Positions 35,124 through 39,545 of a stretch of 64,000 bases of DNA are shown piece by piece (the stretch's first letter is position 1; every line of letters starts with the position of its first letter). The position numbers and the translations under genes are program-made. The stretch lies in NCBI GenBank assembly GCA_005884765.1, contig VAZV01000133.1, positions 62,001-126,000 on the forward strand, written 5' to 3'. The stretch is from Alphaproteobacteria bacterium. GTDB taxonomy: Bacteria > Pseudomonadota > Alphaproteobacteria > Rhizobiales > Xanthobacteraceae. The notes beneath the pieces were generated by a model, which was not told where the DNA came from, did not search any database, and worked only from the letters and a program-made list of their open reading frames with translations.

Positions 35124-35462
35124 ATGACCGAAGGTGTCAAGGACGCCAGCGCACTTTACGAAGTCGAGCGCCGCGCGCAGTACGGAGCCCGCCCAGGCTT
35201 TCGCATCACCGAGTTGCAGATAAGCCCAAGCCAGAAGGTGCCGTGGCACTATCACAGCAATATCCATGACACGTTCTACGTGGTGGAGGGAGCGCTGCGC
35301 ATTTTTCTCCAGCAGCCGAAAGAAGAGGTGCGGCTGGCACGCGGACAGACCTTTTCCGTGCCACCCAAGCGCCCGCATCTCGTCACCAATGGCGGCGACA
35401 CCTCGGCGGTATTTCTGGTGCTGCAGGGAATCGGTGACTACGATTTCGTGCCGCTGACCTGA
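35124..35462 (+). CDS. Single-domain cupin protein
   Basis: 112 residues starting at ATG 35124, with GGAGGCGAGAGG just upstream; an in-frame ATG at 35103 would add seven residues. Cupin motif 1 is PWHYHSNIHDTFYVVEGALR, with His-x-His and a threonine-phenylalanine replacing the usual glutamate region (H-Y-H-x5-F), and motif 2 is FSVPPKRPHLVTNGG with the second metal-binding His. Overall it resembles small RmlC-like cupins such as those in DMT or quercetinase-like families. Function unknown. It lies between two antitoxin remnants. Confidence 0.82.
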   Translation: MTEGVKDASALYEVERRAQYGARPGFRITELQISPSQKVPWHYHSNIHDTFYVVEGALRIFLQQPKEEVRLARGQTFSVPPKRPHLVTNGGDTSAVFLVLQGIGDYDFVPLT

Positions 35463-35640
35463 GAAGCGCGCCGATCTCTTGTCTTTAGCTTGGTCCACTC
35501 CCTGTGAGAAATGACCACGGCAGCCGGCCGGCCGTGCTTGGTGATCGTCGTGGGGCTCGCCGTTCTCGGCGGCCTCGACGACAGCCGACAGTGTTGCCTT
35601 GCCCTCGCGGAGCTGAAGTTTTTCATGGATCTGCTCTGTG
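35438..35640 (-). pseudogene. Phd/YefM-type antitoxin with two compensating frameshifts
   Basis: The ATG frame (from 35626) encodes 62 residues, but only its second half, TTITKHGRPAAVVISHREW, is Phd-like. The matching N-terminal Phd sequence, KLQLREGKATLSAVVEAAEN followed by GEP, is in another frame: one base is missing just after the ATG (ATG-AAAAACTTCAG where ATG-GAAAAACTT would give MEKLQL), and an extra C occurs in GAGCCCCACGACG. The two changes cancel, so the frame stays open while about 23 N-terminal DNA-binding residues are garbled. No toxin gene follows; the 3' end overlaps the cupin gene by 25 bases. Confidence 0.75.
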
Positions 35641-35661
35641 ACTACAAGAACTATTGTAGTC
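35640..35661. promoter_or_regulatory. Operator-like palindrome of the Phd remnant, with overlapping promoter
   Basis: GACTACAA-N6-TTGTAGTC, perfect eight-base arms, sits 14-35 bases upstream of the antitoxin start. On the minus strand TTGACT (about 16 bases upstream of TACAAT) provides -35/-10-like hexamers overlapping the palindrome, as expected for an autoregulated toxin-antitoxin operon. Confidence 0.65.
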
Positions 35662-35857
35662 GCAGACCTGCGAAGTCAAATTCGAGATGAAGAGACCCCC
35701 TGCTGCGTGGGCCGGCCTTGGGGAGAGGAGCAGATAACGTGATTTGATGAGGCTCGAAGACCTTGAAAGGGAATAGCGGCGCGCGCCCCGTATGACTACC
35801 TCGCCCGATCGCGCTGGGGTATTTTGGCGCTTGGCGCCTGGAACGATGTGTTAGTCG

Positions 35858-37333
35858 ATGGCTTACAAGAGAACCCTCAACGAACGTCGTTTGACCAGGC
35901 GCCAGGTTCAGGAGCTGATTTCATCCGGTGCCCGACCTCGCCCGGATCTCTCGGCGGCTTTCGAGTCGACGTTGCTGCAACCGCTCGTGTACGAACTTGA
36001 GGGTGACCGTTATCTGCTGGTGTTCGGCGAGCAGGTCTCAGGGCTCGCAGGCAAGGGCGACATCTACTCGGCCGACGACATCAGCCGGTTCGCGCGCTGG
36101 ACCGCGAAGGTTGAAGAGGACGCCAGGCATGGGCGTCAGAGCTCCGTCCAGCATTGGGTTTACTATTCGGTGCTCAAAGATCGGTTGATATCCGAGATCG
36201 ACACCCTGGTCGCGCAGCTCCGTTCGACGATTTCGCCGCGAGCAGACGGCATCGACTTCTCCTACAAGAGTCTCGATGTTGTTTCCGAATACGTGGAAGG
36301 CGTCGGCGTCGAGCGAGCGCAGCAAGAGCTCTACGATCACCTCGTGGCCTATGTCGGTGAAGTGCTGCGGTTGCGGATTCAAGGGCGTTGGGAAATCAGG
36401 AGGGACGAACCGCGGCCCTATCCGTATCTTGTGGGCGTGAACCACGATCCCGTGATGCCGATCAACGTGGTGTGGGGAGAGCTGTCGGGCTACGCGCCGT
36501 TGGACCTGAGGGCCGCCGCTGCGAACGAGGTCCGCCGCAAGCGCAAGCCGCCGTGGCTTGTAGCAGATTCGGCGACGAGCGTTGGCGCGGCTGTCCCAAA
36601 GGGCGTGCTGGCGACGCTTCCGGCAGATGCCTACGAGGTCACGAAACGATGGACGGATGGCCGGCCGTGGATCGTCATGTTCAAGGGGGATGTCGAGGTT
36701 GCCAACGTCCCGTGCCGAGGCGAGGCCGCGTTCGGCCGCAAGGGCGACCTCATCTGCGCCACGCTGTCCCGCGAGTGGCTCTTCGGTACGCGGCGGTTCG
36801 TCGCCGGCTCTCACTTCCGGTACTACCGGGGAAGCGAGGACGGGCGCCTCAACGATGTGACGTTGGGCGCGGATCAAGAGATCGATGGCCTGCCTTGCCT
36901 TGGCGGGACGCTGGTGTGGTTCCACCCCAACCAGCGCGTCAGCTCTCTTCACTTGGCAAGCGATCGTGATGTCGATGGCATCCCCTGCGCCGGCGGTAAG
37001 GATTTGCTGTTGGCGTTGAACTTCCATCCGAACGGGTGCCTTGCGGGCGCCACGTTGTCGCGAGAGCACGTCCTCATCGGCCGGATGTTTCCACGCAGGA
37101 CGCACGTCAGCTTCGACGCAAAGGGCCGTCTCGTCCATGCTGCTTTTCCCGAAGACTGGGACATCGACGGCATCCCGGTCAAAGCCGGCGCGCAACCTCT
37201 CGCGTTTCACGATAACGGCCGCCCGCGCGAGCTGATCCTGGCCCGTAGCCACGCGGTCTCGGGCCGGCGATACGACAGCGGGACGCTTCTTCGCTTCGAC
37301 CGTGACGGTCGGCTGATTTATGTCCAGCCATGA
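35858..37333 (+). CDS. Unrecognised two-part protein with about seven degenerate GIPC/FHPNGRL repeats (491 aa)
   Basis: No known family assigned. Residues 1-235 are mixed alpha/beta without signal peptide: YLLVFGEQVSGLAGKGDIYS, ARHGRQSSVQHWVYYSVLKD, YDHLVAYVGEVLRLRIQGRW, PYPYLVGVNHDPVMPINVVW. Residues about 280-491 consist of 28-33-residue repeats of two alternating types: (D-x-x-[IV]-D-G-[IL]-P-C-x-G-G ... FHPNGRL) as in QEIDGLPCLGGTLVWFHPNQ and RDVDGIPCAGGKDLLLALNF, and (G-x-x-F-x-x-G-T-x-x-x-F-x-x-x-G-R-L) as in GRMFPRRTHVSFDAKGRLVH and GRRYDSGTLLRFDRDGRLIY. The repeats recall YwqK/MORN-like beta units. It lies next to antitoxin remnants in an accessory stretch. Alternative identities: a polymorphic-toxin immunity protein or a surface repeat protein without export signal; neither is proven. 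Confidence 0.7.
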   Translation: MAYKRTLNERRLTRRQVQELISSGARPRPDLSAAFESTLLQPLVYELEGDRYLLVFGEQVSGLAGKGDIYSADDISRFARWTAKVEEDARHGRQSSVQHWVYYSVLKDRLISEIDTLVAQLRSTISPRADGIDFSYKSLDVVSEYVEGVGVERAQQELYDHLVAYVGEVLRLRIQGRWEIRRDEPRPYPYLVGVNHDPVMPINVVWGELSGYAPLDLRAAAANEVRRKRKPPWLVADSATSVGAAVPKGVLATLPADAYEVTKRWTDGRPWIVMFKGDVEVANVPCRGEAAFGRKGDLICATLSREWLFGTRRFVAGSHFRYYRGSEDGRLNDVTLGADQEIDGLPCLGGTLVWFHPNQRVSSLHLASDRDVDGIPCAGGKDLLLALNFHPNGCLAGATLSREHVLIGRMFPRRTHVSFDAKGRLVHAAFPEDWDIDGIPVKAGAQPLAFHDNGRPRELILARSHAVSGRRYDSGTLLRFDRDGRLIYVQP

Positions 37334-37421
37334 ATCGTAGTCGACCGGGGCGGGCGGGCACCGCGTGGCGATGCTGGCATAAAGCCCCAATGCCGCTTCA
37401 TAACGCTACGGAGAGGTGATA

Positions 37422-37502
37422 ATGCCCGTCTTCATCAACCGTGGCGCGCCATTCATGATATTGGGTGGACCCTTCGCCCTCGTTCAGACCTGCCATCGAT
37501 GA
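37422..37502 (+). CDS. 26-residue leader-like ORF coupled to the rhodanese gene
   Basis: MPVFINRGAPFMILGGPFAL... starts at ATG 37422, after GGAGAGGTGATA, and its TGA overlaps the rhodanese ATG (ATGA at 37499-37502). The strong ribosome-binding site and exact coupling suggest it is translated, either as a leader peptide or as the remnant of a longer gene. The rhodanese ATG itself has no good ribosome-binding site, so coupling could be needed for its expression. Confidence 0.45.
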   Translation: MPVFINRGAPFMILGGPFALVQTCHR

Positions 37503-38731
37503 TCGCGCCAACCGTCACCCCCTCGCAAGTCCGCTGCGCGCTGCTGCTGCGCGATGAAATCGCACTTCTCGATTTGCGGCATGAGGCCGCCTATGCCACA
37601 GGCCATCCGTTATTTGCCGCCAACATGGCAGCCGACAGGATCACGCTCGAAGCCGAGACGCGATTGCCCCGCAAGAACGTGCCGATCGTTGTTTATGACG
37701 CCGGCGAAGGTGTTGTTCCGCAGGCTGCCGATCGCCTGAGGGCGATGGGATACACAGACGTTCGTCAGCTCGACGGAGGACTGCAGGCATGGCAGATGGC
37801 GGGCTTTGAGCTGTTCAGGGACGTGAATTCCTACGCCAAGGCCTTTGGTGAAATGGTCGAGTCCCGCCGGCACACGCCCTCGCTCTCCGCTGACGAAGTC
37901 GCCGGGCTGATGGCGAGCAAAGCCAATATAGCCGTGCTCGACGTCCGGCGGTTCGATGAATATGCGACCATGAACATCCCCGGCTCCATCAGCGTGCCCG
38001 GCGCAGAATTGGTGCTGCGCGCGGGCCGCGCCGCGCCTGATCCCGAAACGACCATCATCGTGAATTGCGCGGGTCGCACCCGATCGATCATTGGCACCCA
38101 GTCGCTGATCAATGCCGGTGTCGCCAACAAGGTGCTGGCGCTGCGAAACGGCACGATCGGCTGGACTCTCGCTGGGCAGGACCTCGAGCATGGCGCGGAT
38201 CGGCGTGGCGAGATCGGCCTGTTCGAGGGCGCGAAAACCAATGCCCGCGAAGTTGCCTATCGCGCCGGCGTTCGGCATGTCGGCATCGCAGAAGCGATCG
38301 CGCTCGAGGGGCAGACTAGTCGCACGCTCTATCGCTTCGACGTTCGCGCGAGCGAAGATTATGCGGCCGGCCACCTCCGTGGCTTTCGTCACTACCCGGG
38401 AGGACAGCTGGTCCAGGAGATCGACATGGCGGCACCGGTGCGCGGGGCGCGCATCCTTCTGACCGACAATATGGGTATCCGCGCCGATATGACCGGTTCC
38501 TGGCTCGCGCAAATGGGGTGGGAGACCTACGTGCTTGAAGGCGGCTACGAGCGCACGCTCGAAGTGGGGCCGCCGGAAGTATTGCCAAAGCCCGATCCGT
38601 CCCACCGCTACCGGCGTCCCTACGAGGGCACCGACAGAGCTCCGGGCGCGATGCAGGCCTATCTCGATTGGGAATATGGGCTTGTCGAACAACTCCGGCG
38701 CGACGCAACCCATGGGTTCTTCGTGATTTGA
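37499..38731 (+). CDS. Multidomain rhodanese-like sulfurtransferase, shortened form
   Basis: 410 residues with three rhodanese domains: about 8-105 (LLDLRHEAAYATGHPLFAAN, no Cys in YDAGEG), 125-225 (VLDVRRFDEYATMNIPGSIS, catalytic Cys in IVNCAGRTRS) and 255-355 (RFDVRASEDYAAGHLRGFRH, no Cys in LTDNMGIR). The C-terminus YLDWEYGLVEQLRRD is a tail I recall from longer (about 530-residue) four-domain relatives. The fourth rhodanese domain seems to be missing between EVGPPEVLPKPDPSHRYRRP and that tail, so this is an internally shortened version. Only domain 2 can form a persulfide. Role: sulfur transfer, acceptor unknown. Confidence 0.85.
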   Translation: MIAPTVTPSQVRCALLLRDEIALLDLRHEAAYATGHPLFAANMAADRITLEAETRLPRKNVPIVVYDAGEGVVPQAADRLRAMGYTDVRQLDGGLQAWQMAGFELFRDVNSYAKAFGEMVESRRHTPSLSADEVAGLMASKANIAVLDVRRFDEYATMNIPGSISVPGAELVLRAGRAAPDPETTIIVNCAGRTRSIIGTQSLINAGVANKVLALRNGTIGWTLAGQDLEHGADRRGEIGLFEGAKTNAREVAYRAGVRHVGIAEAIALEGQTSRTLYRFDVRASEDYAAGHLRGFRHYPGGQLVQEIDMAAPVRGARILLTDNMGIRADMTGSWLAQMGWETYVLEGGYERTLEVGPPEVLPKPDPSHRYRRPYEGTDRAPGAMQAYLDWEYGLVEQLRRDATHGFFVI

Positions 38732-39089: not shown

Positions 39090-39545
39090 ACGAACGTTGG
39101 GCGAGATGCGGTGGACGCGATAGCGTCGCGCGAGCCAATGGCTGGTTGCAGGGCGGGTCCAATATGGATTTCCGTGAGCGATAAGTCGGCGTGCAGACGA
39201 GCGGCGCTGAAGCGGACGGCAAAACCGTGTGGTCCTGGCATCCGTTGCTGATGTCAAGTTTGCGGAAGCATGTCGGCCCGACCGGGTGCGGACACGCCTT
39301 CAATCCGCAGATGACGGTGACAAGACGAATTCGTCGCCGAGGAGAGCGCGCTATAAGCCGTTAAAACCATCGCGCAGGGAAGGCCGGACTGTTTCGGTGA
39401 ACCTGTGGTGACGACGCTCGTGCGCTTTTTGTTTTGCGTGCGAGGCTGCGGGTGCATCGAGCACCCGGCTTTCCCTGCGCCCTCTATTTTTCCGGGCGGG
39501 AATTTCATGCACGACTCGGGCGCTATCGCGCCGCGAGAATGCGAT
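39090..39545 (+). repeat. Degenerate Bradyrhizobium-type interspersed repeat
   Basis: The stretch contains landmarks of a dispersed element well known from Bradyrhizobium genomes: CGTGTGGTCCTGGCATCC, GAGAGCGCGCTATAAGCCGT, AACCATCGCGCAGGGAAGGC, GGCTGCGGGTGCATCGAGCA, CCCGGCTTTCCCTGCGCCCT and the terminal ATCGCGCCGCGAGAATGCGA. The inner parts are complementary (CGCAGGGAAGGCCGG against CCGGCTTTCCCTGCG), giving a long hairpin. Short open frames inside it are by-products of the repeat. Recognition is from memory of the motif, not from an alignment. Confidence 0.7.

What the first reader, a model, noticed from the sequence alone, without database searches (positions are those of the whole stretch)
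35858..37333. Unrecognised 491-residue protein with alternating GIPC and FDxxGRL repeats
The C-terminal 210 residues contain about seven 28-33-residue units of two alternating kinds, a layout reminiscent of YwqK/MORN beta-strand repeats, fused to an N-terminal alpha/beta domain that I cannot place. It stands alone in the window's most accessory stretch, beside two antitoxin remnants and a decayed repeat, which suggests lateral acquisition. A contact-dependent toxin immunity factor, effector or scaffold are possibilities.
Basis: partly seen in the sequence, partly recalled or inferred. Interest (0 to 1): 0.62.

Follow-up and report, generated by a model that had tools for sequence, protein, structure and literature searches.

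The report
Rare orphan MORN-like repeat protein
A few related bacteria carry a rare gene for a protein with a variable front part and a sheet-like repeat tail; it may shield the cell from rival bacteria's toxins, but that is not shown.

Summary
The ORF is real: 491 aa at 35858-37333, under purifying selection (dN/dS 0.25 and 0.27 against relatives of 75% and 72% identity). Residues 266-491 hold seven units of 27-34 residues plus an 11-residue cap; by eye the two kinds run A-B-A-A-B-A-B, so they alternate only roughly. AlphaFold2 models this part as a beta-meander. Its best matches among viral models are mostly MORN-repeat proteins (best E 5e-8), but no Pfam model matches by sequence. The N-terminal part is mostly unmodelled; three of four homologue fragments weakly resemble DUF3806, below Pfam's cut-off, and a whole-genome search did not repeat it. 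The gene is rare: 4 of 265 genomes of the genus, in three neighbourhoods. In one (G223) it lies about 200 bp from, and divergent to, a gene that looks like a polymorphic toxin; that toxin-like gene is absent from the other three carriers. Best reading: an orphan, laterally mobile, YwqK-like immunity protein (0.35). A general binding scaffold is almost as likely (0.33). New variant of a known kind; modest interest.

The parts
35858..37333 (+). The 491-residue protein-coding gene
   Evidence: Open frame with stop; dN/dS 0.25 and 0.27 against the G027 and G223 homologues
35858..36133 (+). Residues 1-92, small alpha/beta N-terminal piece (helices 14-22 and 29-35, strands 43-46, 51-55, 67-71, helix 72-90); fold not identified
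   Evidence: AF2 of the N-part: ten-residue blocks from 11 to 90 at pLDDT 59-92; 46-86 in the full-length model
36305..36514 (+). Residues 150-219, tentative DUF3806-like region
   Evidence: Pfam PF12713 E 0.017 here and E 9e-4 in the G027 homologue, both below the gathering score. Against: no match at E<=0.01 in G000 or G027 in a whole-genome search; hhalign against five DUF3806 proteins found nothing
36653..37330 (+). Residues 266-491, seven units of 27-34 residues plus an 11-residue cap; modelled as a MORN/YwqK-like beta-meander
   Evidence: Self-comparison, AF2, Foldseek against viral models
37145..37330 (+). Residues 430-491, the last units, without counterpart in the open frames of the G027 and G223 homologues
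35438..35626 (-). Phd/YefM-type antitoxin remnant beside the gene (context, not part of it)
   Evidence: NCBIfam phd_fam E 4e-7; the relative L004 has a PIN-domain gene in the matching gap

Best explanation
The gene encodes an orphan immunity-type protein of the polymorphic-toxin world, acting in the cytoplasm. The C-terminal MORN/YwqK-like sheet, perhaps with the variable N-terminal part, binds and blocks an incoming bacterial toxin domain. The gene moves between strains without any one toxin and is kept as a stand-alone shield. Shown: the gene, its repeats, the modelled kind of fold, the rare distribution in three neighbourhoods, purifying selection between distant copies, and one copy next to a polymorphic-toxin-like gene. 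Inferred: lateral movement, toxin binding, which part binds, and protection. Cytoplasmic location is judged by eye from the basic N-terminus; no predictor was run.
For: Fold: ten-residue blocks from 271 to 491 have pLDDT 72-92; 57 viral models match at E<=1e-3; of the 50 rows listed 27 are named MORN and one, at rank 2, 'Antitoxin'. YwqK of B. subtilis is described as the likely antitoxin of YwqJ, and a YwqK-family gene lies upstream of a T6SS vgrG gene in an endosymbiont (passages seen: PMC6562991, PMC8321402, PMC8163844). That YwqK is a MORN-type protein is recalled. Context: in G223 the gene starts about 200 bp from, and divergent to, a 310-aa protein containing HEVQH, itself followed by a 115-aa gene. 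That protein matches three Streptomyces plasmid records in parts, one annotated SpvB/TcaC N-terminal domain protein, and G223 holds a relative of it, 57% identical over 199 aa but with no match in the C-part, the recalled mark of polymorphic toxins. Distribution: 4 of 265. Fast change: in the allele pair window/L004 the N-part has 17.5 non-synonymous and 8.5 synonymous differences (dN/dS 0.67), against 0.08-0.22 in four neighbouring genes (Fisher on rounded counts p 0.0017).
Against: The window has no polymorphic-toxin gene beside it among the neighbours scanned. The G223 toxin-like protein occurs in 1 of the 4 carriers, and in G223 the 115-aa gene directly after it is the more obvious partner. 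No T6SS sheath gene (VipB) was found in this 95.7%-complete genome; other delivery systems were not searched. The large survey of immunity families has neither 'MORN' nor 'YwqK' in its held text (first 300,000 of 357,715 characters). MORN-like sheets serve many other roles (recalled). The fast N-part rests on 26 differences in one pair, was noticed after the fact, gives p 0.07 against the transporter gene alone, and L004 may be a paralogue rather than an allele.
Confidence: 0.35

Rival explanations
1. A general binding scaffold or adaptor: the N-terminal part recognises one partner and the repeat sheet another, in an accessory function unrelated to toxins.
For: Two-part architecture with a repeat sheet; the number of units differs between homologues; no partner gene was seen to be shared by the three neighbourhoods; weak likeness to other extended sheets, e.g. 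the CPAP TCP10 domain, Z 7.0, rmsd 7.8 over 150 residues.
Against: Z of 7-8 is typical of chance best rows by the tool's own note; a rare gene in changing neighbourhoods fits conflict functions better than core scaffolding (inference).
Confidence: 0.33
2. A secreted or injected effector acting on a plant or protist host.
For: Accessory distribution and repeat architecture.
Against: No secretion signal seen by eye in the basic N-terminus; no tts-box-like motif near the gene (recalled consensus, up to 3 mismatches: 3 matches in the window, 1.23 expected, nearest at 39253, downstream); no VipB. Type III and IV secretion genes were not searched.
Confidence: 0.1
3. A passenger of a decaying accessory region, with no present function in this strain.
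For: Neighbouring Phd remnant; in G027 the frame ends while DNA similarity goes on for about 34 bases.
Against: The window and L003 copies are full length and open, and between them the C-part has dN/dS 0.14.
Confidence: 0.12

Closest known systems
MORN_2 / YwqK-family repeat proteins (PF07661)
   Same: Modelled beta-meander of tandem units with an aromatic-x-x-[ND]-G-like joint; Foldseek matches to models named MORN and to one named 'Antitoxin'
   Different: Units of 27-34 residues where PF07661 has 22 positions; no sequence-model match; fused to a ~240-residue N-terminal part; no adjacent polymorphic toxin seen in the window
DUF3806 (PF12713)
   Same: Weak profile match over residues 150-219 (140-216 in the G027 homologue); similar predicted order of helices and strands, by eye
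   Different: Below the gathering score, not repeated by the whole-genome search or hhalign; the five DUF3806 proteins fetched are 139-176 aa and show no such repeats by eye
CPAP TCP10 domain, OspA, SET7/9 MORN domain (PDB)
   Same: Extended beta-sheets aligned to residues ~240-491, only about 250-390 for SET7/9
   Different: Z 3.6-7.0 with rmsd about 4-14, a level the tool calls common; no claim of kinship

Membership tests
MORN_2 / YwqK | Match to the Pfam MORN_2 sequence model | tested here: not met
   No Pfam hit at E<=10 for the whole protein or the C-part; no PF07661 match at E<=0.1 in the genome. Caveat: the model rings in 5 of 14 control genomes, over the cut-off in 0, so this short model is insensitive
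MORN_2 / YwqK | Beta-meander of short tandem units | tested here: met
   AF2 model of residues 246-491 and Foldseek matches to MORN-named models, probability up to 1.00; TM-scores are low (query-side 0.12-0.24), so this is likeness of fold only. PDB gave nothing at E<=1e-3
MORN_2 / YwqK | Gene paired with a toxin gene | tested here: not met
   None recognised beside the window copy. In G223 a toxin-like gene is divergent; in L004 a PIN-domain gene is upstream
DUF3806 | Score above Pfam's gathering cut-off (21 bits) | tested here: not met
   15.3 bits in the window and L003 fragments, 19.4 in L008, no hit in L009; 0 of 60 genus genomes, G000 and G027 among them, at E<=0.01
DUF3806 | Shared fold | tested here: inconclusive
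   N-part model below pLDDT 50 for nearly all of 93-235; no Foldseek match at E<=1e-3; hhalign of thin alignments negative
Polymorphic-toxin immunity proteins | Neutralises a cognate toxin | not testable with these tools
   Needs a bench assay
Polymorphic-toxin immunity proteins | Co-occurs with a cognate toxin across genomes | tested here: inconclusive
   The one toxin-like protein tested is found in 1 of 4 carriers; other toxins were not searched

The most novel reading that the evidence does not exclude
An undescribed class of two-part, mobile orphan immunity protein: a fast-changing N-terminal recognition part on a MORN-like repeat sheet whose number of units differs between lineages (residues 430-491 present or absent), acquired as a stand-alone shield without its toxin.
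Probability: 0.15. Interest if true: 0.5.

Novelty: new variant of a known kind. Interest (0 to 1): 0.3.

Why it matters
The roles of MORN-like repeat proteins in bacteria are little tested (recalled). This family is small, differs in unit number, and in one genome lies next to a polymorphic-toxin-like gene, which gives a concrete pair to test. If it is only a scaffold, it still shows a MORN-like modelled fold that the sequence libraries used here do not recognise.

Tried and rejected
Sequence libraries: for the full protein Pfam and NCBIfam gave no family at E<=10 and E<=1, PADLOC none at E<=0.1, PHROGs one chance-level family, E 0.043. Plasmid and phage collections: no match at E<=0.01. Permissive plasmid searches with the C-part and the G027 homologue gave 7 and 8 records, E 0.8 or worse; one Streptomyces, one Acidisarcina and one Ensifer hit were opened. 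Pfam gave the Streptomyces protein only a weak DUF6278 hit (E 0.038) and the Acidisarcina protein nothing relevant; the Ensifer one was dropped untested, because the script meant to read it stopped early. Viral contigs: no relative of A1, A3 or the toxin-like neighbour. A gyrase-A hit (E 0.031 with the window protein; E 0.0046 with the N-part profile) was rejected as chance because the L008 and L009 N-parts alone do not give it at E<=10. Foldseek in PDB gave no match at E<=1e-3 for either model. hhalign of the N-part with five DUF3806 proteins found nothing; with a local profile of those five, none of the real N-parts was among the 15 best rows shown, all shuffles.

No empty site could be shown. 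The downstream rhodanese gene has a match at E<=1e-80 in 57 of 60 genus genomes, own included (59 of 100 genomes in all), but in none of the 29 non-own loci opened did any of the nine other window genes tested, the target included, match within the about 1.5 kb of flank held (L039 and L045 are shortened by contig ends).

G199 holds two copies at contig ends; tandem paralogues and two strain alleles cannot be told apart.

Full report
The observation. The open frame 35858-37333 (+) encodes 491 residues. The C-terminal part is truly repetitive: the best internal 25-residue match scores 61, against at most 42 in 200 shuffles. Seven units of 27-34 residues and an 11-residue cap start at residues 266, 293, 326, 356, 390, 420, 451 and 481. 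By eye the units fall into two kinds in the order A-B-A-A-B-A-B, so 'alternating' is only roughly right.

It is a selected gene. Between the window copy and the homologues in G027 and G223 (75% and 72% identity) dN/dS is 0.25 and 0.27, and 0.23 between those two. Composition is ordinary for the window.

Distribution. A protein search of the genus finds it in 4 of 265 genomes, own genome included; an earlier search of 100 relatives found 2, own included. Profiles found only the own genome among 385 genomes of the class (N-part), 398 of the phylum (C-part) and 276 of the family (whole). These are samples of larger groups, and only the best few candidates per genome were scored, so rarity rather than absence is shown. 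No plasmid or phage record matches at E<=0.01.

Neighbourhoods (names not backed by a family search are recalled from sequence). The window and G199 share the site: M3-peptidase-like gene, DUF1007-like gene, transporter, cupin, then this gene and a rhodanese; in G199 this is spread over two contigs, each with a copy. G027 has it between a sigma-factor/YCII-like stretch and a transporter. G223 has it on a 4-kb contig, about 200 bp from and divergent to a 310-aa protein with HEVQH, a 115-aa gene after that, and on the other side a gene with weak HSDR_N/VRR-NUC/Shedu likeness. The 310-aa protein matches three Streptomyces plasmid records in parts, one annotated SpvB/TcaC N-terminal domain protein, one unannotated, one hypothetical. 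G223 also holds a relative of it, 57% identical over 199 aa, whose C-part does not match, the recalled mark of polymorphic toxins. Scans of the first protein with Pfam and of both with NCBIfam name no toxin domain. This toxin-like protein occurs in only 1 of the 4 carriers, so it is not a fixed partner.

Structure. With a five-row alignment AlphaFold2 gave mean pLDDT 64. Residues 84-245 are below 50; ten-residue blocks from 271 to 491 lie at 72-92 and form an even succession of short strands. Against viral models Foldseek gave 57 matches at E<=1e-3; of the 50 listed 27 are named MORN, 17 have no name, and one, at rank 2, is named 'Antitoxin' (best E 5e-8). TM-scores are low (0.12-0.24 by the query, up to 0.59 by the target), so this supports the kind of fold rather than kinship. 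Against PDB nothing passed E<=1e-3; a second look ranked CPAP TCP10 (Z 7.0), OspA (Z up to 6.2) and SET7/9 (Z 3.8), a level the tool itself calls common. The N-part alone modelled poorly (mean pLDDT 49) and found no fold.

The N-part. A fragment of residues 101-235 matches Pfam DUF3806 at E 0.017 in the window and in L003 and at E 9e-4 in G027, but not in G223: 3 of 4 fragments, all below the gathering score. Against it: the full-length window protein gives no hit, the DUF3806 model finds nothing at E<=0.01 in 60 genus genomes, G000 and G027 among them, and hhalign with five DUF3806 proteins is negative. DUF3806 is sparse in the phylum, 5 of 398 genomes at E<=1e-4. The held paper library has no paper with the word DUF3806. 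I treat the assignment as tentative.

Recent change. In the pair window/L004 (187 codons) the N-part shows 17.5 non-synonymous and 8.5 synonymous differences, dN/dS 0.67; the M3, DUF1007, transporter and cupin genes of the same pair give 0.08, 0.12, 0.22 and 0.18. Pooled and rounded, the contrast has Fisher p 0.0017; against the transporter alone p is 0.07. This fits fast adaptation or relaxed constraint, and L004 may be a paralogue. Between distant copies the N-part is no faster than the C-part (N-part 0.25 and 0.25, C-part 0.23 and 0.27, window against G027 and G223). The window and L003 are base-identical in every 100-bp bin from 35300 to 36499, then differ by 1-8 per 100 bp to 37299 and by 13-14 around and just behind the gene's end: a mosaic, by recombination or assembly.

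Unit number. The G027 and G223 frames end near residue 435 of the window protein, and DNA similarity stops at window 37192 and 37144. So the last units are a lineage difference; in G027 the frame ends shortly before the similarity does.

Interpretation. The kind of fold, the rarity, the changing neighbourhoods, the fast N-part in one pair and the toxin-like gene next door in one genome together favour an orphan immunity-type protein. None is proof. Against it stand the missing toxin partner in the other carriers, the missing T6SS sheath gene and the lack of 'MORN' or 'YwqK' in the held text of the main immunity survey (PMC3482391, passages only). YwqK itself is described only as a likely or putative antitoxin in the passages seen (PMC6562991; PMC8321402).

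Noticed in passing
window 35438-35626 (-); L004 7041-7784 (-): The Phd-type antitoxin next to the gene is a remnant; the relative L004 carries a PIN-domain gene in the matching gap, so a toxin-type gene was lost in one lineage or gained in the other.
   Followed up: partly
window 35300-36500 against L003: About 1.2 kb is base-identical between the window and a MAG that differs by 1-8 per 100 bp through most of the rest of the gene; the 3' edge lies inside the target gene.
   Followed up: partly
window 37393-37453; L008 7298-7358: A 61-bp stretch just behind the gene is 77% identical to a stretch about 1.7 kb before the gene in G027 (E 2e-6).
   Followed up: no
L009 932-1861 (-), L024 1177-1989 (-): G223 has two toxin-like proteins with a shared N-part and C-parts that do not match; the first contains HEVQH and is followed by a 115-aa possible immunity gene.
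   Followed up: partly
window 37499-38731: The downstream protein with three rhodanese stretches is kept in 57 of 60 genus genomes, but none of nine other window genes was found beside it in 29 non-own loci.
   Followed up: partly
L009 3438-4022 (-): Weak HSDR_N/VRR-NUC/Shedu-like nuclease-type gene beside the G223 copy.
   Followed up: no
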